Shown: piece after piece, positions 26,395 through 51,599 of the stretch
How positions within the stretch are numbered: the first letter of the stretch is position 1
How the letters are laid out: each line of letters opens with the position of its first letter
From: Mycolicibacterium neworleansense
GTDB lineage: Bacteria > Actinomycetota > Actinomycetes > Mycobacteriales > Mycobacteriaceae
Assembly: GCF_001245615.1 (NCBI RefSeq)
Contig: NZ_CWKH01000001.1
Location: 1,736,001-1,800,000, forward strand
Direction of reading: 5' to 3'
DNA: 64,000 bases
Made by a program: the position numbers and the translations under genes
The notes under the pieces: generated by a model
What the model saw: only the letters and a program-made list of their open reading frames with translations
Database searches by the model: none
Told to the model about the DNA's origin: nothing

Positions 26395-26537
26395 ATTTGT
26401 GTCTGCGCGCATCGGTGGGCTAATGTTCTGCTCCGCGACGGGCGACGATCTCGCTCGTGGCGCGCGGATGTAGCGCAGTTGGTAGCGCATCACCTTGCCA
26501 AGGTGAGGGTCGCGGGTTCGAATCCCGTCATCCGCTC
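26395..26537 (+). repeat. Direct repeat copy 2 (tRNA-Gly plus promoter)
   Basis: Matches 19828-19970 over 143 bases with three mismatches, all upstream of the tRNA. It marks the junction between the ESX/kinase stretch and the contractile-injection locus. Confidence 0.9.
26464..26536 (+). tRNA. tRNA-Gly (GCC), copy 2
   Basis: Identical in all 73 bases to the tRNA-Gly at 19897-19969. CCA is not encoded. The last nine bases overlap the stop end of the 1931-aa gene on the opposite strand. Confidence 0.95.
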
Positions 26538-29500
26538 TTCAGGGTCACCGTGCGCACACCGAGTTTGCCGTCGTTGTCACGAATCTTGAGCAACCACGTG
26601 ATCGGTGGGACCGCCGGGGGCGTCGGCGCGTCAGGCGGTACCGGTGGCGGTGGCGCGATCGTGACGGTGACGGTGGTTCCGGCGATGCCGACGCGGGCGC
26701 GTGAGGCATCAGGCGGGTCGTCGACGAGCTCGAACGGCCCACTCCCCCCGCTTATCGTCAGTTCGAGCGGCGCCGCAGGGGTCACCTCGGCGGACGCGGC
26801 GTCCAAGGTGAAGTTCGGGTTGACCGTGATGGTGAACTTCCGTTCGACACCGGTTCCGAACCGCACCACCACGTCGACGTTCTGTGCGGACTCCACGAAT
26901 TTGTCCTTTGCGGCGGTGAACCTCCAGCGTTGCCCCCGCGGAGCGACGTCGCCCTCAAGCTTGGCTCGCAACAGGTTTCCGGCCGGGATGATGCTGGCCG
27001 GTCCGGCCACCTTGATCGGCAGCTCGAGATCGAAGGAACCGGCCGCTGTCATCGTCGCCGTGCCACCGCCGGGCGGCAGCGCGGGCAGGTCCGTGGCGGT
27101 GATCAGGAAGTCGCGCACCGGAATCCAGAACTCGTCGTCGATATAGGTGCGTTTGCCGGCCAGCGTCGGGACGTCAGGGTGGTCGAGGTCGAACAGGTCT
27201 GCATCGGTGGGCCGGATGGGCGCCCAGATGCGGACCCGCACATCGGTCGGCAGGGTCGCGCCGGCCGCCGGCGGGTCGACGGTCAGGTCCCACCCGGCCC
27301 CGGCAGGGCGTGCGGTGACGGTGACCCCAGCGCCCGCGGCGGCTTGCCAGGCAGTGGTGTTGCGGCCGGCAACCTTGAGAGTCTGCTTCTCGGTGATGAA
27401 CCGCGCGATCCCTGGCCCGGCCGGCGCGGCGCCGCTGGCCGCGGGGGTGCTCCAGGCCACCGGATCGTCACCGAGGGTGACGGTGGAATCGATGGTGATG
27501 ATGGCGATGTCGGTGTTTGCCCGGTCGTCGGACGGAGTAGCGGGCAGCGGAAGCCGCGCGGGCGGAACGTTCGCCTGCCAGGCGCCCGGCCCCGCGGGCA
27601 GCAGGTAGCACCCGAGCCCGCTGAATACCCGCGGCGGGATGGGCACGATGGCCCGCAGGCGCGGCCGCATGATGGTGCCGGCCGGGACCTCGAGAAGTTC
27701 GGTGACGACCGGGGCACCGCCCCCCGCTACCGGCGGTCCGTCCACCCGCAGCGTCGTCGGCGCTGTGCCTCTTACCGTTTCATAGAGGTCGGCTGGCAAC
27801 AACGCTGTGCCGGCGGCCGGCGTGAATTGCAGGATGCCGTAGAAATCGGAGCTGTCGTAGTAATCGATGCAGGTGACCAGGCCGGAGCCGTCGGCGTCGC
27901 AGCGGCCCATCGCGGTGTTCCGGCTCTGCCAACCGTCGTAGAAGGACATCAGCCGAACGGCATCCCCCAACGGGGCTGTGACATTCGCATCGGCAATATC
28001 GGTCATGTTGGTCAGGTCGGCGTTGAACTTGTCATCGACGGAAAGGATGTTCGAGTACAGGTTGCCACTCTTGCGGCTCGCCTGCTGTTCGAGGAAGTTT
28101 CGCTCGCTGTCGGGAAGAATCAGCTTGATGAACCCCACCAGCGGGGTCCATGCCTTCAGATCCAGCGCCCTGGTCAGCAACCGGCCCAGCACCACCCGCC
28201 AATCCTTCGACTCGTCGTCAGAAGCGCGCACCTCGGGGATCGAGTTGATGATCGCCTGGTTGAGCGGATTGAACACCGCCGCCCAGTCGTCGAAGTTGGT
28301 GGCGAGGATCGCCTTTCGCGCGTCGTCGTCGGGCAGCGCCGGGCCCAGGATCACGAAGCTCCAGATGATCTGCATCAGACCGCCGATGCTGACCAGCTCG
28401 AACCAGTTGGTATCGAGCCCGCTGACGTCGTCGTCCACGTCGGCCGGCCCGTGGTCCATCCAGCTGACGTCTTCATGATCCGCATCGTTGGCGACCAGGA
28501 CGTCGCGGATACTGCGGAACACTCCTTGCAGCGGCAGCGCGCCGAGTATCGGTCCCCACCATGTGTTCTGCAACGTGTGCACGAGTTCGTGATCGGCCAG
28601 GGCGTCGGCCATGGTCCAACGGGCTCGCGGCTCCTCGGGTACCTGCACCTCCCCGGGGAAGGCGAACACCTTCCCGCCGCCGGCATCCGGGCGGGTCACC
28701 GCCGACTTGACGAACCCCCGCACCACCAAATGGAACGCACCGGTGGCGTCCGGCGTGATCTGCTGCCGGTACCGCCGGGGGCGATCGTCGAAAGCATCTG
28801 GCTCCCAATAGAACCGGCCGTCCTCCTCGACGATTTTCAGCTGTGAGGACAACAGCCAGTAGTGACTCCCGGCGACCGTCACCGGCTGCCAGTAATCGTT
28901 GAAGTCGGGGTGCATCGCGGCCGGTCGCGGAGTCGCCTGCAGGAAGAAGCGCCAGCCGCTGGGCTGCCGGGCGAGGCTGTAGTTACCCGAACCGGTCCCG
29001 TCCACCGGCACCACACCCATGATCGACGCCGGCCACGCGCCGTAGGCGGAGGGCAGGTCGCCGCCGGTGTGCCGGATGAACCGGGCCGCGGACATCTTGG
29101 TGCCGATCGTGGAGCCCTCCGGCGTATACCTGGTCAGGGTGAACGGCCCGGTTCCGATCAGCGGATCGACAGTGTCGACGCTGACTGTACCGATCGCCGA
29201 GATCTCCCGAACCCGTCGGTCTGCACCATCTTCGATGAGCACCGGTTGCTTGGCCGACATCAATGCGGTGGAGGTGACCTTGACGGTCAGCACATCACCC
29301 GCCTGCGTTGTCCCGGTGCCCTTGTCGATGTCCCGGTTGGTTTCCTTCAACCGAGCCACCCGGACAGCGCCGACGGGCATCCCGGTGAGCGGTTCATCCA
29401 GGGTGATCGACGCCAGGACCGCCGCGGCGCCCGGTGTCCCATCCGGCCCCGGCGGGCCGGCCGGGACTGCCGCATCGACCTTGCTCACCCGGCCGTACCC

Positions 29501-32323: not shown

Positions 32324-32330
32324 CTGGACC

Positions 32331-35300
32331 TCATCCCACGCTCACACTCACACTTGCCCCCTCGGAGATCCGGGACAGTTCGTCGAGCAGCGCCTTCCAC
32401 TCACGTTCAACACCGTCGAGCACCGCGGTGAAGGTCTGCCTGAGCTCGTCGACCACTCCGAGGGCGAACTGCAGATCGATGGCGGCGATGGTGTCCAGCG
32501 CCGTCCCGAACGACTCGGTCTTGTCGACCAGCGGGGCCAGCACCGCGCTGGGCCGCATGGTTGCCAATTGCGCCTTGATCGGCACGAACGGATCGGCGCC
32601 GGCGAACAAGGCTGCCGGCGACAACGACCGCAGTTGCGCGATACAGGTATCGAACACGTGCCCGAGTTCAGCTGCCAACGCCGCCGGTGAGTGCAGACCG
32701 AGCAGGGAGATCGCAGCGCGGATGACGCCACGCACCGCGTCCTCGACCGCGGCCGGGTCGAGGACCTCGACACTGGCCAACACCCGGTCCAGCCCGGCCT
32801 GCAGCCGGCCGATCACCGACTCCGGCATCAACGGCTCGATCCCGGCGAACAGGCCGTCGACGAGTTTGAACAAACCGTTGGCCAGCTCGTCGCCCAGCGC
32901 CACGAACCGGGCCTCGATACGGGCGCCGATGGCGTCGAGTTGATCGGCCAGCGTGCTCGGGTCGATCCGATCGAACACCGCATCCAGGAATGCCGCCGTC
33001 GCGGTCGTCGGGTCCAGACTTCCCGACACCAATTCATCCGGAAGCGCCGCGTCGAGTGCGCGGGCCAGCACCCGGATGCTGCGCCCCAACGTGGCCGAGT
33101 CCGATGTCTGCCGCAGCCGCGCGGCGTGCTGAGCGACGTCTGTATCGGTCGCCGCGCTGACCCGGGTGTCGAACTGGACATTCCCGGCAGCCGTGTTCAG
33201 CTGAACGCCCGCCGCGGCGTCGACATCCAGGACGGCCACCGCCAGCCGGAACGACTCCAGGTCACGGCGCAGCCGCGCCAGCGGGCCGTCACCGGCGTTG
33301 GGGTCCAGCCAGGTCAGCCGCGCGTCGAGCGCATCGCCGAGCTGGACCGCGAATCCGGTGGCCGGGTCGGTCAGCGCGCGCAAACCCCTTGTCGCCGTGG
33401 CAAGTCCGGCCAGTGCAGGTTCCAGAGCATCCCCGGCAAGGTCTGCCAGCCGGTCCCGCACCTCACCGAGAAACAGCGCCAGCGGGCGCAAGACGTCGCC
33501 GAGCTGGAAACCGTCACCGGCCACCGGCGCCGGGGCCGCGCCGGAGACACCGGAGGCCAGCCGCTGCCCCAACCGGCTGGACATCTGGTGAGGCATGTCG
33601 GCCAGCCCGCCCAACGCGGCTCGCAGCGTGGCCGCAATATCGATGCGGTCCAACAGGTCTCGCAAAGCCTGGTACGCCGCCCGCATCGGGGCGAACAGCG
33701 GCGCCGGGTCCAGTGCGGCGGTCAAGCCGTCGATCAGATCCTGGAACCTGTCCTCCAGCGGCGCGATCAGGGTGCGCGGGTCGGCACGGTCGAGCTGGGC
33801 GATCACATCGTCGAACAGCCGCTGCGCGGCATCGATCAAAGGTTGCAGGCTGAGCCGGTCCACCGCAGCGGCCAGTTCCTCGTAGGGCGGATCGAGTTCG
33901 GCGATCAGCGCGGACGGCGTGGCCTTGGCAAGTGCGTCACCGGCCACCTGCCAGATTCCCTCGACAGGGGCGATCAGGGCGCCGACATCGATGGCCAGGA
34001 CGGCCTTGTCGAACGGGGTCGAGATCTCGGCGGCGATGTTCATCTCACGCAACACCGCCGCAGCCGTGGCCACGGCGACCTTGACCGGCTCCGGGACGTC
34101 TCCACCACCGACCGCCTCGACGACCTGATTTCGAATGCCGTGCAGCAGGTCCAGGGTCGCGGTCCCCGCTGCGTCGAAATCGATGCCATTCAGTTGATCG
34201 ACGATGCGGGCGAGCTGCGCGGCGATTTCCTGCACGAACGGCACCAGCCGATCCACGATGTCGCCGAGCGGTTCGATGACGGCATCGACCGCGTCGCGGA
34301 TCGGTGCGACATCGATGTCGGTGAGCAGTCCGTTCACCTGCGCCACCACAGCAGCGATCCCGCCGGTGACGGTCGACGGATCAAGTGAGGCGATCGTGGC
34401 GTTCAGCTCCCGGATCGGCGCGACCGCCTCGTCGAGGAAGCCGAACCCGTCGAACGTCAGCACCTTCTGCTGGGCGGCGACCACCGCGGCCACCGCGTCG
34501 TCGCGCAGCCCGCGTACCGGCAATCGGTCCAAAACCTTTGCAGCTTCGTCGAACCCGCGGTCCAACTCGGACAGCAGATCGTCCAGCCGATCCAGCCCGG
34601 AAGCCGCCAGCAGTTCGTCCTTCATCGCCGCCATGGCCGCTGTCACAGCGTCCGGGGTGAGTTGTTCGAGCGCGTCGGCCATCCCGTCCAACGACTCGAC
34701 GAGCTGGCGGGGAATGTCCTCACCGGGCAGTGGCAGCGCAGCCGCCAGCCGGTCCAGCGAGGCGGCCAGATTCAGGTCGGGCAGCGCGTTGGCGGCGGTG
34801 CGCAGATCGGTGGCCAGCCCGGCCGCGAAACCGGGCATCGCGACGGCCACGGCATCGACGGCGGCGCCGACCTCATCGATAATCGCCAGCAGGGCAGGAA
34901 CATCCGGTGCCGGCGCGGCCATCAGTGCGTAGCCGGCGTCCAGCCGCACGCCGACGGCAGTCACGGCCGCCTGCAGCGGTCCCGCATCGCCGGCGCCGGT
35001 CACCAGCGTCAAGGCGCGCTCGGCTCCGTTCAGCAGCTGCTGCACCGCGGCCAGATCCAGCCCGGTCAGCACAGTGCCCAGGATGTCGAGGAGTTCCGCC
35101 GGATCCGGGTCGCCGGCCAGCGCCGACAACGCCTGTAACGGGCCGGTGAACTCGTCGGGAATGTCGATCTGCAGTGTGTGCGCGGCCTGGTCGGTGATCT
35201 CTCGCAGCATTGTCTCGAGGTTCAGCGAACCTCCCAGCGCGGCGAAGATCCGGTCCAGCACCACTGCGCCGTCACCGCCACCGCCGAATGCCTCGGCCAG

Positions 35301-35612
35301 TACGATCAGCCGCTCGGTGGTCACCTCGAACCCGCCGACAATCTCTGCGATGCCACGCAGATCAGGTAGGTCGATCAACTCGGACAATGCTTGGAGTGCC
35401 TGCCCGCCAAGATCATTGACGACGGCCGGGTCCAGCTTCACCGCACCGGCCGCGGTCAGGGCCGACCCCAGGTCACCGAGTAGGACCGTGGGGTCGAGGT
35501 CTGCCACCGACAGCTGCTGGGCCTGCTCGAATGCGTTTCTGGCCCGGGTGAGGGCACTGTCGATCGCCGCGAAGTCCAGGGCGTTGATCTCGGCTTCGAA
35601 GGTGGCCATCAT
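32331..35612 (-). CDS. 1093-aa helical protein, candidate tape measure
   Basis: 1093 aa, almost entirely Ala/Leu/Asp-rich amphipathic helix, with loosely repeated units of about 35-45 residues built on a LIAPLExxFxxLIDxL-like pattern broken by Asp-Pro pairs. No catalytic motif or signal peptide was seen. It is the only long helical protein in the locus, so it is the best candidate for the length-setting tape measure. At about 0.15 nm per helical residue it would span roughly 160 nm; both role and length are inference. Start ATG overlaps the upstream stop (ATGA), and the stop lies seven bases before the Rhs gene. Confidence 0.6.
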   Translation of the reverse strand: MMATFEAEINALDFAAIDSALTRARNAFEQAQQLSVADLDPTVLLGDLGSALTAAGAVKLDPAVVNDLGGQALQALSELIDLPDLRGIAEIVGGFEVTTERLIVLAEAFGGGGDGAVVLDRIFAALGGSLNLETMLREITDQAAHTLQIDIPDEFTGPLQALSALAGDPDPAELLDILGTVLTGLDLAAVQQLLNGAERALTLVTGAGDAGPLQAAVTAVGVRLDAGYALMAAPAPDVPALLAIIDEVGAAVDAVAVAMPGFAAGLATDLRTAANALPDLNLAASLDRLAAALPLPGEDIPRQLVESLDGMADALEQLTPDAVTAAMAAMKDELLAASGLDRLDDLLSELDRGFDEAAKVLDRLPVRGLRDDAVAAVVAAQQKVLTFDGFGFLDEAVAPIRELNATIASLDPSTVTGGIAAVVAQVNGLLTDIDVAPIRDAVDAVIEPLGDIVDRLVPFVQEIAAQLARIVDQLNGIDFDAAGTATLDLLHGIRNQVVEAVGGGDVPEPVKVAVATAAAVLREMNIAAEISTPFDKAVLAIDVGALIAPVEGIWQVAGDALAKATPSALIAELDPPYEELAAAVDRLSLQPLIDAAQRLFDDVIAQLDRADPRTLIAPLEDRFQDLIDGLTAALDPAPLFAPMRAAYQALRDLLDRIDIAATLRAALGGLADMPHQMSSRLGQRLASGVSGAAPAPVAGDGFQLGDVLRPLALFLGEVRDRLADLAGDALEPALAGLATATRGLRALTDPATGFAVQLGDALDARLTWLDPNAGDGPLARLRRDLESFRLAVAVLDVDAAAGVQLNTAAGNVQFDTRVSAATDTDVAQHAARLRQTSDSATLGRSIRVLARALDAALPDELVSGSLDPTTATAAFLDAVFDRIDPSTLADQLDAIGARIEARFVALGDELANGLFKLVDGLFAGIEPLMPESVIGRLQAGLDRVLASVEVLDPAAVEDAVRGVIRAAISLLGLHSPAALAAELGHVFDTCIAQLRSLSPAALFAGADPFVPIKAQLATMRPSAVLAPLVDKTESFGTALDTIAAIDLQFALGVVDELRQTFTAVLDGVEREWKALLDELSRISEGASVSVSVG

Positions 35613-38082: not shown

Positions 38083-38091
38083 GCGTCGGCC

Positions 38092-39576: not shown

Positions 39577-39579
39577 CGC

Positions 39580-40533: not shown

Positions 40534-40561
40534 CAGCGTCTCCTTTGTCTCGGTCCGGCCC

Positions 40562-41065
40562 TCAGCGGGCCAGCCACTGCAGGTCTCCGAACGGGAACTC
40601 GACTTCCCAGAACAAGGTCAGGTCGTGGTCGGCCGCCTTGGTCACCGGCGTGAAGACGACCCGGTTGTAGAGCACGTCACCGCCGGCTCTCCGGGACATC
40701 AGCGCGGCCTCGCGCAGGGTTCCGACGCCGGCCGCATTGGGCAGGGTGGCCCGCACCTTGACCAGCACCCGGCTGCGCGTCTCGTCGACCGAGGTGGTGA
40801 ACGCCTCGGCCGGAATCGCCGCGACGGTGTCGCCGGTGATCCCGGGTTGGCCGGTGCCGTCGTCGTTTCCGAGCGCAGCGACGGTTACGGCGGTGGGGTC
40901 GGCGTCACTGGTACCGACAGCCATGTGGGTGATGGGAGCGCCGGCGCCGGTGAACAACTCGGCGATCAGCTGGCCGCCGGTGCGCAACACCGTGTTGTGG
41001 GCTTGCCGGGTCTGCAGCACGGTCCCGTACCGGTCGACGAGCTCGACCTTCAACTGTGCTCGCAT
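40562..41065 (-). CDS. Phage-tail-type accessory protein (fibre-like)
   Basis: 167 aa. The pattern HNTVLRTGGQLIAELFTG, ITHMAVGTS, then a late MYNRVVF-like segment (VLYNRVVFTPVTKAADHDLT) occurs in small tail proteins next to fibres in phages and phage-like particles. ATG 41065 is used because AGGAG lies six bases upstream; a longer frame would overlap the preceding gene. Its exact place in the particle is unknown. Confidence 0.65.
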   Translation of the reverse strand: MRAQLKVELVDRYGTVLQTRQAHNTVLRTGGQLIAELFTGAGAPITHMAVGTSDADPTAVTVAALGNDDGTGQPGITGDTVAAIPAEAFTTSVDETRSRVLVKVRATLPNAAGVGTLREAALMSRRAGGDVLYNRVVFTPVTKAADHDLTLFWEVEFPFGDLQWLAR

Positions 41066-41079
41066 GTCGTCTCCTGTCC

Positions 41080-42348
41080 CTACTCGTAGGTGCTGTCGTC
41101 GTATGCCGTGACGCCGAACAGGCCGCCGGAGTCGGTCAGCCGATCGACGCCCACCGTCCCGATCTCGTGTTGCGCCATCCCGCTGATGCACGTCAGGTGA
41201 TCGAGTTGGCGTTGGCTGTCGTGCAGCGGCCGGAACCGGACCTCGGCGTCCACCCCGGCCGCGGCCAGTTCGCGGATACCGGTGCCGACCGATCCGCACA
41301 GCTGTTCGCGGGCCAGGAGGGCGTCGTCGAGCCGACCGGCGTCACTGACCAGGGCGGTGGCGTCCAAGTCGACCCGGATGGTGGCCGGACGCCGCTCGAA
41401 CCAGCTCAGGTCCAGGTAGGCGGCCGGATCCAGATAGAACAGTGCGTGATCGAATTGGGATGTGTCCCAACGCCCCTCGGTCAGATCAAGCCCGGCCAGC
41501 GCCAGCAGCGCGCGGTCCAATCCTGGGGCGTCGAAATGGGCGACCGGCAGGAACCACAGATCGTTGGGTCCGGGCCGCAGCGTCAGTGCCCGTGGCTCGC
41601 CGACATCGGCCGGCGTCCAGGTGGTGCCGGGGACGACCTGGCGGATGCCGTGCAGCTTGGCGGTGACGTCGGATCGGTTGAGCTGCGCGGTGATCGAGCC
41701 GTCGGGCCGGGCCCGCAGCCACAACCGATCACCGAGGCGCAGCTCGCCGAGGTAGGCCAGTCCCTCGCCGGTGGTCGCGTTGACCAGTACGGGCACGTAT
41801 TCACTGTGTTCACCACCGACGCAAAGCACCGACAGCGCAGCTGGATCTAAGCCGCCGTGGCAGACCTGCCGGGTCAGTGGCTCGACCGCCCCGGGACCAC
41901 CGAGCCGCACCGTGCGCAGCTGCGGCTGGTTCTCGATGAACGCATGCCCGCTGCGGGTGAATTCGGTGGCCCATGTCTCGAACGGCGGTAACACCTCGAT
42001 GTCGTTCACCCTTTCGAACTCGTCGACGTAGTGCCGGGTGAACGCCATGAGTGCGGGAACGCTGACGGCCCCGTGTTCCAGCCGCGCGGTACGCAACGCA
42101 TGCAGCCATCCGCGATACTCGCCGAGCCCCTGCCAGGGCTGCGGTGGGATGTCCAGCAACGCACCGAGCGCCGCAGCCTCCGACAGCTCGACCGTGGTGT
42201 CGAACCAGTGGGCGCGCTGGATGATCCGCGCGACCTCGTCGACGATGTCCAACTGCAGCCCGGACACTTCGGCCAGCCCGGTGACCAACTCCCCGTCCCG
42301 GTACAGGGTGGGCAGGCGGCCGGCGATGGCTTCGGCGTGCGAGGTCAT
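41080..42348 (-). CDS. gpI-like baseplate protein
   Basis: 422 aa. The N-terminal ~120 residues match the phage tail protein I type: LPTLYRDGELVTGLAEV, then LEHGAVSVPALMAFTRHYV. In P2-like tails gpI works with gpJ to link wedges and fibres. The protein is longer than P2 gpI (about 176 aa); the added C-terminal part (~200-420) is beta-rich and could hold a fibre-attachment domain. Overlaps the gpJ-like gene by four bases. Confidence 0.8.
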   Translation of the reverse strand: MTSHAEAIAGRLPTLYRDGELVTGLAEVSGLQLDIVDEVARIIQRAHWFDTTVELSEAAALGALLDIPPQPWQGLGEYRGWLHALRTARLEHGAVSVPALMAFTRHYVDEFERVNDIEVLPPFETWATEFTRSGHAFIENQPQLRTVRLGGPGAVEPLTRQVCHGGLDPAALSVLCVGGEHSEYVPVLVNATTGEGLAYLGELRLGDRLWLRARPDGSITAQLNRSDVTAKLHGIRQVVPGTTWTPADVGEPRALTLRPGPNDLWFLPVAHFDAPGLDRALLALAGLDLTEGRWDTSQFDHALFYLDPAAYLDLSWFERRPATIRVDLDATALVSDAGRLDDALLAREQLCGSVGTGIRELAAAGVDAEVRFRPLHDSQRQLDHLTCISGMAQHEIGTVGVDRLTDSGGLFGVTAYDDSTYE

Positions 42349-44069
42349 GACAGCGCCTCGTGGACGTCCAGGGTCCGCTGCCGCAACTGCTCCCCCGCGG
42401 CCACGATGTAACTACCCTGGCCGTCCAGCAATTGGACGAACTGTCCCGACGACTCGACCACAATGCCGGCCTGTTCGCGGACCACGCCGAACAGCGGGCT
42501 GGACTGCAGCGCCGACGCCACCGCGGCCAGCGTCAGCGAGGTGCCGGGACCGAGCGTGGCCAGATAGGCGTCAACCGCCAGCCGGATGGCGATCGTCGCA
42601 TCGTCGAGCGTGACGCCGGGCTGCAACTGCACCGGCAAGACCAGGTCGACGTCGCCGGTGGTCGCCACGACACCGGTCGGGGTGCGTTCGGCCTGCGGTG
42701 TCGGAAATTCGAAGGGACGCAACACATCGAGCACGTCGCCGGACTGCAGGACGACCGGCGCACCGGGTGCGGACGGGTCGGTCAGGGTGATCGCGGCGTC
42801 CACGACCAACGGGTCGGCGAGCGCTGCGGCGGTCAGAACCGCGGGTCGGATAACCGCACCGGGTTCCAGCGCGGCGAGCTTGGCCGCAACCCGTTCCTCG
42901 ACACCTCCGGTCACCCGGTTGAGTTCGGCGCCGCTGACCCCGGTGCCCGCCAGCACCAGCGTGACGTTGACCCGCACGGAACGCCGTCCTGCCGCGCGGG
43001 TGTCGACTCGGATCCCGGCCGGTCGCAGCTCGTCGATACGCCGGCGAACCTCTTTCTCGACCGCCGGATCGGGCCGGTCGTAGGCAACGGCGGCCCGGAC
43101 CACCCCGGCTTGGCCGTCCGGCCACTCGGTGAGTTCGACCGCCTTGACACCGGGGATCGACAAGATGCCGAACCGAAGTGCGTCCAGGGTGCCGCATACG
43201 CTGCCGTGCAGCGCGCCCTTGGCGCGGCGGCGCAGCGCATCGTCCGTTTCGGCCGCCGACTCCCGGTAGGCCGCAGCGGGATTGGTCACCGTCGAGATCC
43301 CGCCGATGGTGGTCTCCAACCGGTCGAGGGCACCGGCTGCGACCATGCCGGTGTCGACCGCGATTCCGGCGGCCGGCACGCTGCGGGACTGTTCGCCGGC
43401 CTCCAGCGTGAGATCGGAGATCGTTCGGTAACGCGCGGGCGGAGTCGCGGCATCGGTGATGACGGTGCCCGTGGGGATGGTGATCTTGCCACCCGTCGTC
43501 GCGTTGCGGCCGAACCGGACCTCCACCAGCGGATGGCGGGCGGGCAACCGGGTGACGCCGATGAGCGCCACCACCTTGTCCAGGGCCGCACCTTCGGCGG
43601 TGTCCAGGAACGCCGAACGGTAGATGAGATCGAGATACTGTTCTTCCTGGGCGATTTCACGGGCGAACGTCTCCAGGACGGTGCGCACCACCGAGCCGAC
43701 ATTGAGGTCGGTCAGCGGCACCGGCCTGGCGATCTGCACCGGGTAGTAGTTCACCGTCAGGGTGGTACCCGGAATCGGCTTGCGGCCGTTGTCACGGAAT
43801 ACCACGACGTCGGGTTTGCCGTCGTTGTCGGTGTCGGCGAGGTCGAAGTCGGCGTCGGTGAACCGCACCGGCACCGGTGTTCCGCCGACATCGGTGACCC
43901 CTTCGAGATGGGAGACGCGCCGAATCGGCCGCGACGCCAACCGGTCCAGCACCAGTGGGCCGGCTACCGGAGCGGTCACCGCTTCACGCACCGTCCCGCC
44001 GGTGAGCGTGGTCAGCAGGTCGCGGACGATGTCCGCATAGGGCCGCGGGGTGTACTCCAGGCCGCTCAC
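42345..44069 (-). CDS. gpJ-like baseplate wedge protein
   Basis: 574 aa with the baseplate-J family pattern: GAALDKVVALIGVTRLPARH, VEVRFGRNATTGGKITIPTG, a beta-barrel insertion, then the conserved RRAKGALHG, the SIPGVKAVEL region and VRVNVTLVL in the C-terminal half. It forms the wedge ring of contractile tails (T4 gp6 class). GTG 44069 overlaps the gp25-like stop as GTGA. Larger than P2 gpJ, as in eCIS versions. Confidence 0.9.
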   Translation of the reverse strand: MSGLEYTPRPYADIVRDLLTTLTGGTVREAVTAPVAGPLVLDRLASRPIRRVSHLEGVTDVGGTPVPVRFTDADFDLADTDNDGKPDVVVFRDNGRKPIPGTTLTVNYYPVQIARPVPLTDLNVGSVVRTVLETFAREIAQEEQYLDLIYRSAFLDTAEGAALDKVVALIGVTRLPARHPLVEVRFGRNATTGGKITIPTGTVITDAATPPARYRTISDLTLEAGEQSRSVPAAGIAVDTGMVAAGALDRLETTIGGISTVTNPAAAYRESAAETDDALRRRAKGALHGSVCGTLDALRFGILSIPGVKAVELTEWPDGQAGVVRAAVAYDRPDPAVEKEVRRRIDELRPAGIRVDTRAAGRRSVRVNVTLVLAGTGVSGAELNRVTGGVEERVAAKLAALEPGAVIRPAVLTAAALADPLVVDAAITLTDPSAPGAPVVLQSGDVLDVLRPFEFPTPQAERTPTGVVATTGDVDLVLPVQLQPGVTLDDATIAIRLAVDAYLATLGPGTSLTLAAVASALQSSPLFGVVREQAGIVVESSGQFVQLLDGQGSYIVAAGEQLRQRTLDVHEALS

Positions 44070-44611: not shown

Positions 44612-44615
44612 CGGA

Positions 44616-45017
44616 TCAGCCGATCAGCACGGTGGGCACGGTGGCGACGATCTGACCGACCGGCGCCTCGGAGGGGTCGTTGCAGGTGCGGACGGGATCG
44701 CCGTTGCGGGCCGCCGGCTGCCCGCCGATCAGCACTCCGCTGCAGCCCATGTGAACGGTGCCGGTGTTGGCCGGCGGTGTCTGGAATGCGACGCCGGGCG
44801 GCGTCGGCAGGTGCGGCGGCTGGTTGACCGCGACGGAACCGACAACCGCGGCCGGTTGCCCCGCGATGAGCACGTTGTTGACGAGTCCACCGCAGAATCG
44901 CCCGCTGAACGGATGCGGCAGCGGTGTCGGGACGGGTCCGCCCGGTGTTGGCACCATCACGATGTGGGTGTCCACCGCCACGACCGTCGCGGCGCCGTTG
45001 GCTGCTGGCTGTCCCAT
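44616..45017 (-). CDS. PAAR-domain spike tip protein
   Basis: 133 aa. The PAAR repeats are visible as THIVMVPTPGG, NVLIAGQPAAVVGS, HMGCSGVLIGGQPAARNGD and PTVLIG. These build the sharp metal-stabilised tip placed on the VgrG/gp5 spike; His and Cys in HMGCSG are likely metal ligands. No extra effector domain is fused. The start overlaps the spike gene's stop as TGATG, so spike and tip are made together. Confidence 0.92.
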   Translation of the reverse strand: MGQPAANGAATVVAVDTHIVMVPTPGGPVPTPLPHPFSGRFCGGLVNNVLIAGQPAAVVGSVAVNQPPHLPTPPGVAFQTPPANTGTVHMGCSGVLIGGQPAARNGDPVRTCNDPSEAPVGQIVATVPTVLIG

Positions 45018-46345
45018 CAGTTCACCTTCATTTGAGGGGCTGAAATGCTCACCGAGCCATCGCCTTTGATGTCGATGTCGGTGGCCCGCAAGCTCAACTT
45101 CCCCGACGTCTTGAGGGCGATGTCACCGCGTCCGGTCACCGTCAGGCTGGCATCGCCGATGGTCAGTTCGATGCGGCCGCCGCCCGCCGAATCGACGGTG
45201 GCCTCCGCATCGCCGGACTTGACGTGCAACTTCGTATCGTCCGCGGTCAGCTCCACCTCGCCCATGGTGATCGTGAGCACCGGGTCTCCACCGCGCAGCA
45301 CGGCCCGGAAACTCGGATCCTGCGCGCCGGCCGGCAACGCGAAAACCACGTCGCCGTCGCCGTGTTCGGGTGGCGCGAGGTCGGCGTGATACAGCCTGCC
45401 GATCACCACGGGGGCGTTGATGTCGCCGTCGGCGAACACCACGACCACCAGGTCCCCGGCACTCGGGGTGGCGGCCTGTCCCAGGGCGGGCACCGCGATC
45501 GGCACTCGCGGCAGCACCAGCCCGGTTTCGCGAAGCTCCACGGTCACCGAATGATCGGCAGGTTCGGCAGTGCCGTCGAACACGTCGACGACCACACCGA
45601 TCGCCGCGATCGATCGGGCGGCCGCGGCAACGCGGATCGTGTGGGCGTCGGGTCCGGGCGCGGAGTCGGGCAGCGTGCCCGTGGTCTGCAGCGGGGCACG
45701 TGCATCCGACGCGTTGCCGGACGGCCCGTTGCCGGTCCACACCACCGCCGACGTGGGTGCTGCGACAGTGACGCCGAGTTCGGCGATCTCGCGGCCGTAA
45801 CGAAGCGCGACGTCGGCCGGTGGCGACGGAAACGGCCGTAACTCGACGGCGCCGTCGGCCGTGGTGGTGGCCAGTGCGCCCGCCCAGTCGGCGAGTCTGC
45901 TGATGTGTTCCCAAGTGGTGCGGCCCTGGTCGGCGGTGTAGCGGGCGAGGTCGAGATCGGCCTCGACGGTGCCGGTGGGCACTCCGGCCTCCTCGGCCAG
46001 CGCGGTGATGATCGCGCTGACACCTTGCTGTTCGAAGGTGCTGCCACTACGGGTGCCCGCCAACGCGGCGGCCGTATCGCCGCATTGCACGGTGTTCTGG
46101 TCCAGACTGCGGCGCACTCCGAGCACCGTTCCGGTGAATACCGTTGACGGCGTGGATGATTCGCCGGTGAGCGATATCGCCACCTCATCGCCGGGCGTTG
46201 CGTCGACGCGCAGGTCACGTGGCAGGCTGATCCGGGCCGAACCTACCCCGGGACCCAGCGACTGCACGATCCGGATCTGGGCGATTCCGGCGTCGTAGCG
46301 CAACGAGCCGATGGTGGCGGTGGCACCGAAACTGAGCACGGTCAT
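45017..46345 (-). CDS. VgrG/gp5-like spike protein
   Basis: 442 aa. The N-terminal part (about 1-200) is the hub domain (gp27/gpD-like), the middle carries the OB-fold typical of gp5 and gpV (AATPSAGDLVVVVFADGDINAPVVIGRLYHADLAPP), and residues ~340-442 form a beta-helix needle with repeats such as ITMGEVELTADDTKLHVKSG. It forms the central membrane-puncturing spike under the tube. No C-terminal effector domain. The reading frame is open further upstream, but ATG 46345 fits the TGATG overlap with the preceding gene. Confidence 0.92.
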   Translation of the reverse strand: MTVLSFGATATIGSLRYDAGIAQIRIVQSLGPGVGSARISLPRDLRVDATPGDEVAISLTGESSTPSTVFTGTVLGVRRSLDQNTVQCGDTAAALAGTRSGSTFEQQGVSAIITALAEEAGVPTGTVEADLDLARYTADQGRTTWEHISRLADWAGALATTTADGAVELRPFPSPPADVALRYGREIAELGVTVAAPTSAVVWTGNGPSGNASDARAPLQTTGTLPDSAPGPDAHTIRVAAAARSIAAIGVVVDVFDGTAEPADHSVTVELRETGLVLPRVPIAVPALGQAATPSAGDLVVVVFADGDINAPVVIGRLYHADLAPPEHGDGDVVFALPAGAQDPSFRAVLRGGDPVLTITMGEVELTADDTKLHVKSGDAEATVDSAGGGRIELTIGDASLTVTGRGDIALKTSGKLSLRATDIDIKGDGSVSISAPQMKVN

Positions 46346-47022
46346 CAGCCACCACCGAACAATTGACTCAGGGCTTTGGAAACCTCGGTGTAGGTACCGA
46401 CGGCCGCATCCACACCGGAGACCGCCTTGGTGAGCGGTTGCAGCGGGCCACCCACGTCGATGTCGGCCATGGCGGCCAGTGCGGTGAGCTGGTCGGCCAC
46501 CTCCATCACCGCGTCGACCGCCGCCGCGACATCGCCGGCCACCGCGGCGAGATCGCCCATGATGTCGGCGTCGAAGCCGAGGTCGCCTACCCCGAAGTCG
46601 TCGAGGCCGCCGAAGCCGCTGACTTCGGCGGGCGGTGGCAGCGGCGGACTTTCGACGAGACACAGCTCGTAGCCGACGATGCCGGTGGTCCCGGCGACAG
46701 CCTGCGCCCGCAGGTCGGTGACCACCACCTGCTCGAGTTCCAGGGCACTGGTGATGTCGGCGGAGAACGGCACCGGCGTGCCGTCTGCCGCCAGCTTCTG
46801 CAGCGCGCCCAGGTTGGCCAGTGCGGCCTCGCCCGAGAGAAGCCCGCGGATCCAGATGGCGTGCGATCCGCGGCCCGCCCGTTGCAGGACGTCGCCGTCC
46901 AGACCGGGTACCGCGATCCGCTGGAACCCGGCGCTCATCACATGGTCGATCTGCTGTACCGAACTCAGCGTGATGTCGCCGACGAGGGGCATTGGAGGTG
47001 GTGGTGTAGCGGGCGCGGTCAT
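46345..47022 (-). CDS. Baseplate hub/tube-initiator-type protein
   Basis: 225 aa. The N-terminal ~120 residues (HVMSAGFQRIAVPGLDGDV, GRGSHAIWIRGLLSG, GTPVPFSADITS) match the N-terminal domain of phage DNA-circulation/tail hub proteins, which connect tube and spike. The C-terminal ~80 residues are helical and Ala/Val/Asp-rich, with no LysM domain. Located between the Pro-rich and spike genes with overlaps at both ends. Confidence 0.7.
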   Translation of the reverse strand: MTAPATPPPPMPLVGDITLSSVQQIDHVMSAGFQRIAVPGLDGDVLQRAGRGSHAIWIRGLLSGEAALANLGALQKLAADGTPVPFSADITSALELEQVVVTDLRAQAVAGTTGIVGYELCLVESPPLPPPAEVSGFGGLDDFGVGDLGFDADIMGDLAAVAGDVAAAVDAVMEVADQLTALAAMADIDVGGPLQPLTKAVSGVDAAVGTYTEVSKALSQLFGGG

Positions 47023-48077
47023 GGCAACAGGCCTCGCAGGTCGGATTCCTCATCCAGTAGTGCGGCAACGAGATTCGCCGTGTCGAACGGATCGGCACCG
47101 GTGGCCGCGGGGGCGGCCAGCCGCTCGGCCCGGGGTGCGGTGGGGTCGTCGCGCACGACGTTCGGCGCTTCGGTGACCGCCGCCGCGGAGACCCGGTGGG
47201 CCGGTGGTTCGGTTCGCTCGTCCGAGCGCTGATCGGCGTGACCGGTAGGTGGCACCGGGCACTGGGCGGCGTGGTTGTCGACGCCCGGGCCGGCAATCGG
47301 CGGCAACCACGGGCCCGCCGCGGGCCACCCGGTTGACCCGGTCGCGCGGATCGGCACCGGAAAGGCCGGCTCCGTGGCCGGATGCGAGGCCGGCCTCTCC
47401 CCCGGTTCAGTTGTCCCAGAATGGTTGTCGTCCCGGATTTTCGGCGCCGGCCCGAGGTTCGGAACGGCGGTGCCCGGTGGCTCCGCATCCGCGTGCCGCC
47501 CCGGGATCGGAGCCGCGGTACCGGTAGCCGCGCCATCGGCAGCGGCCCGCCGAGAGCCGAGCGGTGGAACTGACTGGGTCCCGGCGTCCGCGCCGGACGG
47601 GCACGCGCTGGGCACGTCGGGGTTTGACGGTTCATCGGCTTCGGCCGCAGCGAGCCGGCCCAGCAGGTCGCCTTCGAGAATGCGCAGCGCCTCCGCGGGC
47701 GAAACCGGCTCGGGTCCGGTGGTGAGCACGATGCTCGTCCACCCGTCGACGGCACCGCCGTCGGACGCCTCGGTGGTGAGCAGGTCGATCAGATCCGCGT
47801 CGGTGTCGAAGACGGCGCGGGAATCCCAGCCCGCCGCCGTCAGCGTCGCCGGGGCGGCCGGGGACTCGGTGGCCCAGGCCAACACCGTCGCGCCGATCCG
47901 GTTGCCCCCGTTGACCGCATCGTCGACCACCCGCCACCGTTCACCGAAGCGCAGCGGCCGGATGACACGGTCGCCGACTGCCAGTCCGCCTCCGGGCCGC
48001 GGCTGCACCGCCACGGCGACACCGGCGACCCAGGCCCGGCGCGTGGCCAGGTCGAGCGCAACGATCGGATCGGCCAT
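47019..48077 (-). CDS. Proline-rich protein of contractile locus
   Basis: 352 aa. The N-terminal ~130 residues form a small folded domain (MADPIVALDLATRRAWVAG, RVIRPLRFGERWRVVDDAV). About residues 160-325 are a low-complexity Pro/Gly/Ala-rich stretch. The C-terminal end is a short acidic helix, NLVAALLDEESDLRGLLP. Between tube and hub genes one expects tail chaperones or hub parts, but no family fits clearly. ATG 48077 gives a start eight bases after the tube stop; an earlier start would overlap the tube gene. Confidence 0.6.
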   Translation of the reverse strand: MADPIVALDLATRRAWVAGVAVAVQPRPGGGLAVGDRVIRPLRFGERWRVVDDAVNGGNRIGATVLAWATESPAAPATLTAAGWDSRAVFDTDADLIDLLTTEASDGGAVDGWTSIVLTTGPEPVSPAEALRILEGDLLGRLAAAEADEPSNPDVPSACPSGADAGTQSVPPLGSRRAAADGAATGTAAPIPGRHADAEPPGTAVPNLGPAPKIRDDNHSGTTEPGERPASHPATEPAFPVPIRATGSTGWPAAGPWLPPIAGPGVDNHAAQCPVPPTGHADQRSDERTEPPAHRVSAAAVTEAPNVVRDDPTAPRAERLAAPAATGADPFDTANLVAALLDEESDLRGLLP

Positions 48078-48085
48078 ACTCAGCC

Positions 48086-48457
48086 CTACCGCATCCTGGC
48101 AGCGCTGAATGCGTAAACCGCCGAGCCCTGACCGTTGACCGACAGGTCGAACGTCTTCTCGGTCAGGCAGCAATCGTCGAAGGTGACCGTCGCCTCGGTG
48201 TCGCCATGCCGCAGGTTGGCGATGATCTGAAACAGTTGCTCGCTGCCGAGCGCATCCAGTTTTGCGCTGGCGGACGTGACCCGGATGCGGCCCTGAACCT
48301 CGTAGGCACCCGACACCACACCGACCCGTTCGGTGCTGCCGAGGGCGTAGATGTTGGTGCGCTCGTGGCGGGTCCGGTAGTCGATTCCCTGCACTCCTTC
48401 GATGGGATCCCCGTCGACGAGGACGGTGCTCTCGGAGGCGGCGTAGATGGTCGGCAT
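48086..48457 (-). CDS. Tail tube protein
   Basis: 123 aa, the size of a minimal contractile-tail tube subunit. Beta-strand pattern with VLVDGDPIEGVQGIDYRTRHERTNIYALGSTERVGVVSGAYEVQGRI and the C-terminal strand SVNGQGSAVYAFSAA, as in gpFII/gp19-type tubes. Hexamers would stack to form the inner tube. ATG 48457 follows GAGAGGAC. It comes directly after the sheath gene, the usual sheath-tube order of eCIS and phage tails. Confidence 0.85.
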   Translation of the reverse strand: MPTIYAASESTVLVDGDPIEGVQGIDYRTRHERTNIYALGSTERVGVVSGAYEVQGRIRVTSASAKLDALGSEQLFQIIANLRHGDTEATVTFDDCCLTEKTFDLSVNGQGSAVYAFSAARMR

Positions 48458-48478
48458 GGTGGAGTCCTCTCGGCCGAT

Positions 48479-50173
48479 CTAGTTCTTGACGCGGATGGTT
48501 GCGTAGACGTAGTCGATTGCCCGGACCGGCCGGACCGCGATGTCGACGCGGACGATGCCCTGCGCGAAGTCCTGCTGGGTCGAGTACACGTCGACGATGA
48601 ACGCCGGGTCGGACCCATCGGTACTCGGCACCAGCGCACCGGAGCGTTCCATTCGGGTGAAGGTCGCAATCAGCTGTTGCTTCAGGGCTTCTCGCGCGTC
48701 GGCGGAATTGAGCCGGCCGATGAAGTTCTCGCTGATCGCCTTGGTCTCCCGGATGCAGCGATCGGCCACGCGGGTGACCGAGATCTGGTCACCGATCGTG
48801 TTGATGCCCTTCAGGACGATCACCCCGCGCCCCGCACGTTGCTGTACGACGAGCAGGTTCACCGACGGGCCCAGCAGGACGTTCAGCTCGCTCTCGCGGT
48901 ACCGCGACGGCGGGATTCCGAGTAGTTGCGCCGAGGAGAAGGTGGGCGATATCTCCGGGTTGAGCCGGCCGATGAGCCCGACGACCGCGCCGGTCGCGCC
49001 GGGTGGCGCCACCAGAACGAAGCGCCGGTTACGCACCGCGGCCGCGTGGTCGCGGATCGCGTCGAGGTTGGCGGCGTCGGCCGCGCGGATCGAACCGAAC
49101 GCGATCCGTGGCGCCCCGGCGTCGCTCGCCACCAAGGCGTGCGCGAGCAGAGCCTGGTGAATCGCGATCACACCGGATGTCTCCAGCGCCGGGTCGAAGC
49201 TGGCCATCACCAGATCGATACGGGGATCGTCGGCGAGCAGGTCGATGGCGTTGCGGTAGGCGGTGATGTTGGGCGAGGATCCACCGGCGAAGGCGACGGG
49301 CGCAGGGGTGGCTCGGGGCAGCCGCAGCGCGGCAGGCAACGAACTGCGTGGCACGGCACGGATGTACCGGCTCTGCCTCGACAGCACGGCGGGCAGGTGG
49401 TTCGCCGAATCCGGGTCCATCGTGAGACTTTCGAAGATCTCCTGCCTGGCGCCGTTGCGCAGCACCTCGAGCGTGATCTCATCGTCAGCCCCGCTGATGC
49501 GCACCACCACGCCGTCGCCGCTCGCGCCGGGGATCAGCCGCAGATCCATCAGGACCGTGCCGGCGGCACCGTCCTGCTCCACCTCGGCGGTACCCGCGGC
49601 GTTGAGCGGATAGTCGCCGGGTGCCGGATCGTCGCCTTCGAAGCCGGGTTCGACCGCCACCACGTAGTTGGACTGCGCGTTGACGACCGAGAACAAGTCG
49701 AGCGGCTGGCCCGGTTCGACGATCAAGTCGTCGAATCGTTCCACTTCGGTGTTGTTCTGCAGGATCCGCAGGGTGACCCGGACGACGGCGCCGGTGGCGT
49801 TGGTCACCGTCCGCACGTCAGCGGTCAGTTGGTTTGCCCACGCCCCGGATGCCCTGGCGCGCAACCGAACCGCCGGATTGTTCTCGGAATTTACAAGGGT
49901 GGCGCTGGCCGCGGCCCCACCGGCCACCGCCGATACGACCAGCTCCCGTGCGCCGGTCGACAGCGCGGCGACGGCATCGGGCATGGACGCCAGGGTTCCG
50001 GGGCCGCAGAGATCCTGCAGTTCCGAGACGCGGGTGACGCCGACCAGACGCGGCGCGACCGGGGCCCGATCGACGATGCCGACGACACCCACGATGCCGG
50101 CCGCGGCGGGTAGCGGTGGCAGCACATCGAAGTTGGCCTCGACGGATACTCCCGGGACAACTAGAACAGGCAT
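48479..50173 (-). CDS. Contractile tail sheath protein
   Basis: 564 aa. N-terminus PVLVVPGVSVEANFDVLPPL and a C-terminal domain with RYRESELNVLLGPSVNLLVV, GVIVLKGINTIGD, RRCI-type helix (VADRCIRETKAISENFIG), FVVDVYSTQQDFAQGIVRVD and the final strand AIDYVYATIRVKN are characteristic of contractile sheath subunits. The central ~250 residues are an inserted variable domain that would face outward. A GGAGGA site lies before ATG 50173. This identifies the particle as contractile. Confidence 0.93.
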   Translation of the reverse strand: MPVLVVPGVSVEANFDVLPPLPAAAGIVGVVGIVDRAPVAPRLVGVTRVSELQDLCGPGTLASMPDAVAALSTGARELVVSAVAGGAAASATLVNSENNPAVRLRARASGAWANQLTADVRTVTNATGAVVRVTLRILQNNTEVERFDDLIVEPGQPLDLFSVVNAQSNYVVAVEPGFEGDDPAPGDYPLNAAGTAEVEQDGAAGTVLMDLRLIPGASGDGVVVRISGADDEITLEVLRNGARQEIFESLTMDPDSANHLPAVLSRQSRYIRAVPRSSLPAALRLPRATPAPVAFAGGSSPNITAYRNAIDLLADDPRIDLVMASFDPALETSGVIAIHQALLAHALVASDAGAPRIAFGSIRAADAANLDAIRDHAAAVRNRRFVLVAPPGATGAVVGLIGRLNPEISPTFSSAQLLGIPPSRYRESELNVLLGPSVNLLVVQQRAGRGVIVLKGINTIGDQISVTRVADRCIRETKAISENFIGRLNSADAREALKQQLIATFTRMERSGALVPSTDGSDPAFIVDVYSTQQDFAQGIVRVDIAVRPVRAIDYVYATIRVKN

Positions 50174-50257
50174 GAAATCCTCCGTGGGGCTTGATGTTCC
50201 GCGGGATTGCGGCTCTCGGCGGGCGGCAAGGCGCGACCGGCGATACCGACCGGTCGG

Positions 50258-50482
50258 TCACTCGGTGCGATGCTGATCATCGATGGCCTTTCCCACGACG
50301 TCCTCAATCCAGTTGCGGACTTCATCGGCCAGAGCGGAAAGCTCGGTGAAGCGGCGGCGCTGCTCCGAGATCGGATCGACGAGCTCACCCGTCACTTCCC
50401 CGTTGCCCTCGATGGCGACACGCACCACGACGACGAACTGACGTGTGGCAGAAAGCTTGTCGGCCGGGTCACCTTCCGTCAT
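50258..50482 (-). CDS. Small leader-gene protein of contractile operon
   Basis: 74 aa, not recognised. One beta-hairpin-like N-terminal half (RQFVVVVRVAIEGNGEV) and a C-terminal amphipathic helix (ALADEVRNWIEDVVGKAIDD). GAGGA precedes the ATG, and the sheath gene follows 84 bases later, so it is probably first in the structural operon. It might be a small regulator, chaperone or particle part. Confidence 0.5.
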   Translation of the reverse strand: MTEGDPADKLSATRQFVVVVRVAIEGNGEVTGELVDPISEQRRRFTELSALADEVRNWIEDVVGKAIDDQHRTE

Positions 50483-50657: not shown

Positions 50658-50669
50658 CGGTGAGATCGG

Positions 50670-51437: not shown

Positions 51438-51599
51438 GACCGTCACCCACCACACACGTCGCGAACAGGTGAATGAACCGCTCGACGGTCGGCCGCCCTC
51501 GCCACCTTCATCCGCCACCCCACTCGTAGGTACTGGTCGACTGTTCGAATCATCGTCCAATGGCAGCGGCCGCAATAGAGTAGTCGTCTACTCGGAAAA

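What the first reader, a model, noticed from the sequence alone, without database searches (positions are those of the whole stretch)
26528..50482. Complete contractile injection-system locus in a mycobacterium-like genome
Seen directly: sheath, tube, hub, VgrG/gp5 spike, PAAR, gp25, gpJ, gpI and fibre-type genes on one strand, most overlapping by 1-4 bases or separated by short gaps, with no capsid, portal, terminase, integrase or lysis gene. Established: this gene set defines phage-tail-like particles such as eCIS and R-type tailocins. Inference: it is a dedicated injection apparatus. I know of no characterised contractile system in mycobacteria.
Basis: partly seen in the sequence, partly recalled or inferred. 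Interest (0 to 1): 0.95.

Follow-up and report, generated by a model that had tools for sequence, protein, structure and literature searches.

The report
ATPase-less contractile injection locus in mycobacteria
A mycobacterium carries a 17-gene set, most of it shared in the same order with bacteria of several other phyla, that is predicted to build a spring-loaded phage-tail-like syringe with a likely protein-cutting payload, with no sign nearby of the ATPase gene that known syringes of this kind carry, and in this genome the syringe's hub gene is cut short.

Summary
The observation mostly holds: 17 minus-strand genes (50482-26528) encode a headless contractile tail. Sheath, hub/spike, PAAR, gp25 and gpJ match profiles; predicted folds make gene 2 a tail tube and gene 13 a tail terminator. 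The unnamed last gene (1931 aa) has RHS/YD repeats and the HExxHxxQ signature of the PVC/eCIS metallopeptidase; it ends the cluster in 18 of 18 relatives followed to that end (at least 4 phyla), signature included. No listed AAA+ ATPase match lies within 30 kb in 15 of 15 genomes tested, whereas 5 of 5 Pvc16 loci tested have one within 30 kb. No terminase-like match lies at the locus in 19 genomes. So it is neither a prophage nor a textbook eCIS, but an ATPase-less, horizontally spread CIS lineage that a 2025 census rule would likely discard. It is rare in the family (2 of 401 genomes). This copy is probably crippled: about 340 bp are missing, fusing hub to spike and removing the hub C-terminus; another M. 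neworleansense record has a full-length hub. Payload, loading and firing are inferred. A contractile cluster in Mycobacterium (sp. JLS) was already listed in 2014.

The parts
50670..51575 (-). SARP-type regulator (BTAD domain), upstream and co-directional
   Evidence: PF03704 99.7 bits; homologue upstream of the sheath in M. senegalense, M. agri, MAG RBC062, Agromyces; BTAD is an eCIS 'shell' domain in PMC8213781 (passage)
50258..50482 (-). gene 0, 74 aa, unknown, first gene of the run
   Evidence: open frame; homologues in 4 close relatives; no Pfam or PHROG match
48479..50173 (-). contractile sheath, 564 aa
   Evidence: PF17482, phrog_279; wide profile matches the haloarchaeal CIS sheath 9EZM at 9.2e-7
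48086..48457 (-). tail tube, 123 aa (by predicted fold)
   Evidence: predicted fold matches tail tubes incl. diffocin 8v3t TMq 0.75 and phiCD508 9gb1 TMq 0.76; best PHROG is labelled major head protein, 1.6e-6; beside the sheath in most loci
47019..48077 (-). gene 3, 352 aa, fast-evolving; place of a tail assembly chaperone (inferred)
   Evidence: dN/dS 0.63 against M. senegalense; no profile
46345..47022 (-). gene 4, 225 aa, probable tube initiator/baseplate protein (inferred)
   Evidence: weak DUF6046 here; DUF6046 3.4e-5 and Dit-like 0.023 in the Syntrophus orthologue, below cut-offs
45017..46345 (-). hub-spike fusion, 442 aa: hub N-terminal part joined to the spike (OB domain and beta-helix); hub C-terminus lost
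   Evidence: PF04717 over cut-off, PF22255 just below; two genes in M. senegalense, M. agri, RBC062, Agromyces; gene-4-to-PAAR span 1,654-1,938 bp in 18 of 18 relatives measured against 1,328 here; 0 of 34 homologues is 442 aa long
44616..45017 (-). PAAR spike tip, 133 aa
   Evidence: PF05488 37.5 bits
44066..44611 (-). gp25-like sheath initiator/baseplate wedge, 181 aa
   Evidence: phrog_975 5e-16; Syntrophus orthologue PF10934 1.6e-5, below cut-off
42345..44069 (-). baseplate J-like wedge, 574 aa (GTG start)
   Evidence: phrog_6 2.6e-42; PF04865 6.3e-21 in the Syntrophus orthologue; profile matches solved phage wedges and 8v3w TRI-2 at 1.8e-9
41080..42348 (-). gpI-position baseplate protein, 422 aa
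   Evidence: position and conservation only; no profile
40562..41065 (-). gene 10, 167 aa, phage family of unknown function
   Evidence: phrog_5417 1.7e-17
39580..40533 (-). gene 11, 317 aa, fibre/shaft candidate (inferred)
   Evidence: shares a DWN...HDHP module with gene 12; no profile
38092..39576 (-). gene 12, 494 aa, fibre candidate (inferred; coiled coil by eye)
   Evidence: no Pfam over cut-off
37183..38082 (-). tail terminator fold (residues 1-165) with an Ig-like C-terminal domain, 299 aa
35609..37186 (-). gene 14, 525 aa, unknown
   Evidence: homologue in 18 of 18 relatives; no profile
32331..35612 (-). gene 15, 1093 aa, tape-measure candidate (inferred)
   Evidence: length 1,014-1,104 aa in 18 relatives at 21-83% identity
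26528..32323 (-). gene 16, 1931 aa: RHS/YD repeats plus HExxHxxQ metallopeptidase signature (from residue 1245), predicted payload
   Evidence: PF05593 31 bits, cut-off 22; signature in 18 of 18 relatives; PF13699 eCIS_core over cut-off in the C. gelida orthologue fragment

Best explanation
The locus encodes the parts of a headless contractile tail (sheath, baseplate and PAAR-tipped spike by profile, predicted tube and terminator by fold) ending in a gene for an RHS protein with a metallopeptidase signature, and it would likely assemble into a particle whose contraction drives the spike and that predicted payload into another cell, probably without an AAA+ ATPase. Shown by sequence or predicted fold: the parts and their order, conservation across phyla, purifying selection on most genes, and no AAA+ ATPase or terminase found nearby. 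Inferred: gene 15 sets tail length and gene 13 caps the tail in place of a head. Inferred: gene 16 rides on or behind the spike, and its metallopeptidase cuts itself free or cuts a target protein. Inferred: a SARP regulator switches the run on, and particles leave by cell lysis from another source or act at the envelope. In this genome the hub is truncated, so this copy probably does not make working particles, while relatives should.
For: Profiles for sheath, hub/spike, PAAR, gp25, gpJ. Tube fold and terminator fold. The wide sheath profile finds only the haloarchaeal CIS sheath 9EZM in the PDB. Gene 16 is the last gene of the cluster in 18 of 18 relatives followed to that end, 16 of them on one contig; HExxHxxQ in all 18 and in the window; PF13699 eCIS_core over cut-off in 1 of 4 orthologue fragments sent. 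dN/dS 0.03-0.29 for 14 of 15 genes compared with M. senegalense, gene 3 being 0.63. No listed PF00004 match within 30 kb in 15 of 15 genomes tested against 5 of 5 Pvc16 places tested in 4 control genomes. No terminase-like match at the locus in 19 genomes. The gpJ tree mixes phyla. DUF4157 (now eCIS_core) proteins are more abundant in the secretome of wild-type H. borinquense than of its sheath mutant (PMC11566945, passages); RHS repeats followed by a PVC-metallopeptidase is a known toxin layout (PMC3482391, passages).
Against: No particle has been seen. The window's own gene 16 has no PF13699 match, 3 of 4 orthologue fragments stay below its cut-off or do not match, and the final glutamate of the published HExxHxxQ-E signature is not clear in the mycobacterial copies. 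Gene 16 is evenly conserved to its end (0.76-0.98 identity per 100 aa with M. senegalense), unlike polymorphic toxins, so it could be structural. The tube's best PHROG is labelled head protein. Three more distant sheath relatives (Plesiocystis, a Proteobacteria MAG, a Blastocatellia MAG) have no gene 13 match, so the full set is not universal. No immunity gene or receptor-binding fibre was recognised. The hub here is truncated. The AAA test lists only stronger matches (for G000, 10 of 29).
Confidence: 0.6

Rival explanations
1. A conventional eCIS whose AAA+ ATPase is encoded elsewhere in the genome and works in trans.
For: All 15 genomes tested encode other AAA proteins; the eCIS-type metallopeptidase signature is present.
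Against: No listed AAA match is within 30 kb in 15 of 15 genomes, whereas 5 of 5 Pvc16 places tested have one within 30 kb. Pvc16_N has no match in G000. Sheath, tube and gpJ find no BLAST match in eight stretches fetched around Pvc16 places, though those stretches may not hold the whole loci.
Confidence: 0.13
2. An R-type tailocin: a particle that kills related bacteria by piercing the membrane, with no delivered protein.
For: No AAA+ ATPase near it; tube fold and gpJ profile lie nearest to diffocin and phage structures.
Against: PAAR tip present, which PMC4122934 says pyocin clusters lack; no lysis family among the 17 genes; a conserved metallopeptidase-signature gene of 1,721-2,251 aa ends the cluster in 18 of 18 relatives.
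Confidence: 0.12
3. Gene 16 is a structural or adhesion part (cap, whisker or receptor-binding shell) rather than a payload.
For: Evenly conserved along its length with its closest relative; present in 18 of 18 loci like a core gene.
Against: HExxHxxQ kept in 18 of 18, expected of an enzyme; eCIS_core family match in one orthologue.
Confidence: 0.25
4. A decaying prophage tail module in this strain.
For: The hub is truncated here; the locus lies next to a duplicated tRNA-Gly; gene 2 has a head-labelled PHROG match.
Against: The other genes are open, and 14 of 15 compared are under purifying selection; phage records almost never match the sheath; no terminase-like match at the locus in 19 genomes.
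Confidence: 0.08

Closest known systems
eCIS / PLTS (Afp, PVC, Streptomyces CIS; PMC4122934, PMC8213781)
   Same: sheath, tube fold, hub/spike, PAAR, gp25, gpJ, a Pvc16-like terminator fold, PVC-metallopeptidase signature, BTAD regulator; no head or lysis genes recognised
   Different: no AAA+ ATPase found near it, no Pvc16_N family match, no LysM match, one tube gene recognised; sheath finds no BLAST match in the Pvc16 stretches fetched
Haloarchaeal CIS/T6SS of Halogeometricum borinquense (PMC11566945, passages)
   Same: only PDB sheath found by the wide profile is 9EZM; DUF4157 proteins as released effectors
   Different: hosts and gene content differ, its Fig. 1 legend explains the label ATPase, and no membrane anchor was identified here
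R-type tailocins (diffocin, pyocin R2)
   Same: tube fold near diffocin, gpJ profile matches 8v3w TRI-2 (diffocin by recall), terminator like the R2 collar; no ATPase near
   Different: PAAR and a conserved metallopeptidase-signature gene present; no lysis family recognised
RHS polymorphic toxins with a PVC-metallopeptidase (PMC3482391, passages)
   Same: RHS repeats followed by HExxHxxQ metallopeptidase
   Different: here the gene ends one conserved tail cluster and its C-terminus is not swapped between close relatives

Membership tests
eCIS/PLTS | contractile sheath | tested here: met
   PF17482, phrog_279; 9EZM
eCIS/PLTS | tail tube | tested here: met
   predicted fold matches tail tubes; no profile support and a head-labelled PHROG; one copy recognised, not two
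eCIS/PLTS | intact hub and spike | tested here: not met
   this copy is a truncated fusion; separate hub and spike genes in the 4 close relatives read
eCIS/PLTS | PAAR, gp25 and baseplate J | tested here: met
eCIS/PLTS | P2-gpI homologue | tested here: inconclusive
   position only; no profile
eCIS/PLTS | AAA+ ATPase ('always' present, PMC4122934) | tested here: not met
   no AAA family in the 17 genes at E up to 1; no listed PF00004 match within 30 kb in 15 of 15 genomes tested, of 19 with full loci (list cut near E 4e-13); control 5 of 5 places tested, of 12 found
eCIS/PLTS | Pvc16/DUF4255 terminator | tested here: inconclusive
eCIS/PLTS | LysM protein before the hub | tested here: not met
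   no LysM match in genes 3, 4, 5 at E up to 1
eCIS/PLTS | HExxHxxQ-E PVC-metallopeptidase / eCIS_core domain | tested here: inconclusive
   HExxHxxQ in window and 18 of 18 relatives, final E unclear; PF13699 over cut-off in 1 of 4 orthologue fragments, none in the window protein
eCIS/PLTS | released particle delivering protein | not testable with these tools
   needs culture work
R-type tailocin | lysis cassette | tested here: not met
   no lysis family among the 17 genes or 12 flanking ORFs (Pfam only)
R-type tailocin | no PAAR tip | tested here: not met
   PAAR present; absent from pyocin clusters per PMC4122934
Prophage | capsid/terminase linked | tested here: not met
T6SS i-iii | membrane complex and ClpV | tested here: not met
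   no protein among the 17 with more than one hydrophobic 19-residue stretch over threshold; no AAA match near

The most novel reading that the evidence does not exclude
A horizontally travelling third kind of bacterial injection particle, built like a tailocin but armed like an eCIS: it needs no loading or recycling ATPase because its one constant passenger, an RHS-shelled metallopeptidase, packs itself and is fired once, and it has stayed out of eCIS censuses because their filters throw away ATPase-less clusters.
Probability: 0.33. Interest if true: 0.8.

Novelty: new variant of a known kind. Interest (0 to 1): 0.6.

Why it matters
It would split 'protein-delivering contractile particle' from 'AAA+ ATPase', a link treated as universal in PMC4122934 and used as a filter in a 2025 census (PMC12210884, passages), so a whole lineage, found with sheath, tube and terminal genes in at least four phyla, may be uncounted. 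It offers a natural test of what the eCIS ATPase is for, in tractable environmental hosts (Cellulomonas, Humibacillus, Variovorax), and shows a rare acquisition in mycobacteria.

Tried and rejected
Island boundaries: the gene 16 stop overlaps the 3' end of tRNA-Gly(gcc) 26464-26537 and an identical copy stands at 19897, but no matching repeat was found at the far side and no integrase family among 12 flanking ORFs; left open. Looking for an empty site through the flanking genes in 16 relatives gave only distant homologues (best full-length matches 45% for the hydrolase, 51% for the kinase), so no empty site was shown.

A Walker-motif regular expression found one hit in 100 loci and the window and only one in 8 control stretches; dropped as insensitive and replaced by the PF00004 searches, which list only stronger matches. 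One search was given 15 of the 19 genomes with full loci (left out: Nanopelagicales, Co_bin.359, Agromyces, Occultella). One search tested 4 of the 7 genomes, 5 of the 12 places, with Pvc16_N.

A close-relative sheath profile's only PDB match was a designed PPR protein at 1.5e-6, taken as spurious; a single-sequence search gave none; the wider profile gave 9EZM only. Plasmid records: no sheath match in 72,556. Prevalence: sheath in 2 of 100 relatives, own genome included, and 2 of 401; Pvc16_N in 4 of 201, none in the window's genus among those drawn. NCBIfam (10 of the 17 proteins sent) gave sub-cut-off VgrG, T6SS and RHS-core matches, and the YD repeat over its cut-off.

Rows dropped: one search found 91 relatives and kept 80; I sought gene 13 in 23 distinct genomes of these (24 handles, one a duplicate): 20 have it, 3 do not; 18 were fetched, 2 left out because the contig ends there. 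The other loci were not followed to their ends.

Not-in-print claim: within the held open library, searches showed me no paper describing this lineage. Seen: listings, plus section 4 part 1 and passages of PMC4122934, and passages of PMC8213781, PMC12067865, PMC9230969, PMC12923769, PMC11566945, PMC3482391, PMC12210884. The 2019 eCIS database paper (631 loci) was not seen. The M. sp. JLS cluster was not fetched or compared.
Full report
What is there. The span 50482-26528 holds 17 minus-strand ORFs, all open, 99% coding, with 7 of 16 junctions overlapping by 1-4 nt and only one gap over 28 nt. G+C is 0.67-0.72 against 0.62-0.71 around it. A SARP-type regulator (50670-51575) precedes it; further out lie an alpha/beta hydrolase, TetR, haem oxygenase, a PPE gene and DAHP synthase on one side and a Ser/Thr kinase on the other. 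The PPE gene and the closest proteins mark a mycobacterium; a hub homologue from Mycolicibacterium neworleansense is 100% identical over the 55% of the window protein that aligns, so the window is that species or very near it.

The last gene. Gene 16 (1931 aa) has RHS repeats over cut-off and, from residue 1245, HELVHTLQ, which fits the HExxHxxQ part of the PVC-metallopeptidase signature HExxHxxQ-E (PMC3482391, passages). HExxHxxQ stands in 18 of 18 orthologues; G and P five and six residues after the Q are kept in 19 of 19 rows. Of four orthologue fragments sent to Pfam, the C. gelida one passes the eCIS_core cut-off (23.0 against 22 bits), two match below it and one does not match. Identity to M. 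senegalense is even along the protein (0.76-0.98 per 100 aa), so this is not a polymorphic toxin with a swapped tail. Among 31 homologues of its residues 1100-1500, two carry PF00264 (one named tyrosinase by its source) and one carries PF13091 (phospholipase-D-like by recall).

Lineage. One scan of genome contigs with a sheath alignment gave 91 relatives, 80 kept. Gene 13 was sought in 23 distinct genomes of these: 20 have it; Plesiocystis and two MAGs (Proteobacteria, Blastocatellia) do not. Eighteen of the 20 were followed past gene 13; all 18 have sheath, tube and genes 13-16, gene 16 last. Two of the 18 (Agromyces, Occultella) are split over contigs; PAAR gave no match in Phytomonospora, and in Occultella the contig ends before it. 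By the names shown they are Actinomycetota (11, two of them by recall), Pseudomonadota (4), Nitrospinota (1), Thermodesulfobacteriota (1) and one unnamed bacterium. In the gpJ tree Variovorax pairs with an Acidobacteriota genome (100/100) and Syntrophus with an Alteromonadaceae genome (100/99), so the cluster has likely travelled between phyla. In the family it is rare: 2 of 401 genomes drawn, the window's own included. Against M. senegalense, dN/dS is 0.03-0.29 for 14 of 15 genes compared and 0.63 for gene 3; the hub, gene 12 and the SARP were not compared with it.

Not a phage, not a textbook eCIS. Only 10 of 50,697 phage records match the sheath, none over 80% of it; 0 of 72,556 plasmids. 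Matches to phrog_2 (terminase by recall) were found in 15 of 19 genomes and none lies at the locus: other contigs, or about 1 Mb off in M. senegalense; for Agromyces the sheath contig's number is not known, so there I can only say the match is not on the two contigs bearing gene 13. Four genomes have none. PF00004 matches were sought in 15 lineage genomes: none listed lies within 30 kb of the locus (nearest about 41 kb in M. senegalense, 52 kb in the window's genome), the list ending near E 4e-13. As a control, 5 Pvc16_N places in four genomes each have an AAA match at E 1.5e-22 or better on the same contig 2-30 kb away; that these form one operon was not checked, and 7 further places were not tested. 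In eight stretches around Pvc16 places, which may not hold whole loci, the sheath, tube and gpJ of the window find nothing at E 0.01; only the hub, marginally gene 4, and the neighbouring kinase do. The wide sheath profile's only PDB match is the H. borinquense CIS sheath 9EZM, while gpJ finds phage wedges and 8v3w TRI-2.

The window's copy. From the end of gene 4 to the start of PAAR is 1,654-1,938 bp in 18 of 18 relatives measured (not quite the same 18) and 1,328 here. In the four close relatives read, hub (339-340 aa) and spike (about 220 aa) are separate genes; here one 442-aa ORF joins roughly the hub's first 243 residues to most of the spike. Of 34 hub homologues none is 442 aa long; one distant 552-aa protein from Cyanobium carries both hub and spike families, so fusions as such exist. 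It is a strain-level deletion or an assembly fault; either way this copy should not be used as the type of the system, and intact copies exist.

How it likely works. By analogy with contractile systems: baseplate and tube form around the ruler, the sheath is stacked and capped by gene 13, and contraction drives tube, spike and payload outward. Gene 16 is the best payload candidate because proteins with its kind of metallopeptidase domain depend on the sheath for release in H. borinquense (PMC11566945, passages) and occur in RHS toxins (PMC3482391, passages). Without an ATPase the payload would have to load by binding the spike or tube during assembly. Targets, release and immunity are unknown.

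Novelty. Contractile clusters in Mycobacterium were listed in 2014 (PMC4122934), so mycobacterial presence alone is not new. What I did not find in the held library is this ATPase-less, RHS-metallopeptidase-ended lineage; the 2025 census removed clusters with fibre and tape-measure genes but lacking the ATPase (in one passage also the spike plug) to avoid phages and tailocins (PMC12210884, passages), though whether its searches would have seen this lineage's genes at all was not tested.

Noticed in passing
window 19897-19970 and 26464-26537 (+): Two identical tRNA-Gly(gcc) genes (74/74) in direct orientation bracket a low-G+C stretch and a kinase; the gene 16 stop overlaps the second by 10 nt. 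M. senegalense has a similar layout (L083) and the Occultella locus also ends near a Gly-Cys-Val tRNA cluster.
   Followed up: partly
window 21711-23276 (+): 521-aa protein with weak, sub-cut-off WXG100/T7SS-signal matches in the low-G+C stretch, perhaps a type VII secreted protein.
   Followed up: no
window 50612-50670: 27-nt inverted repeat (81% complementary, 5-nt loop) at the SARP stop, terminator-like by eye.
   Followed up: no
L036, L037, L039, L041, L043, L046, L048-L050, L057, L058, L061, L066, L072, L080: More distant sheath genes (about 33-45% identity) in archaea such as Nitrososphaeria, Bathyarchaeota, Thermoplasmatota and Altiarchaeales, most with the tube beside them.
   Followed up: no
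L038, L042, L052, L069, L074 and their genomes: Proteobacterial and myxobacterial genomes with a distant sheath relative also carry Pvc16_N genes, so two contractile systems may coexist; two archaeal genomes tested (L041, L058) have none.
   Followed up: partly
P0181, P0184, P0185: Homologues of the gene 16 metallopeptidase region carrying PF13091 (P0181) or PF00264, tyrosinase (P0184, P0185).
   Followed up: no
L025/L093 (Phytomonospora): Lineage member without a PAAR match and with the shortest gene 16 (1721 aa).
   Followed up: no
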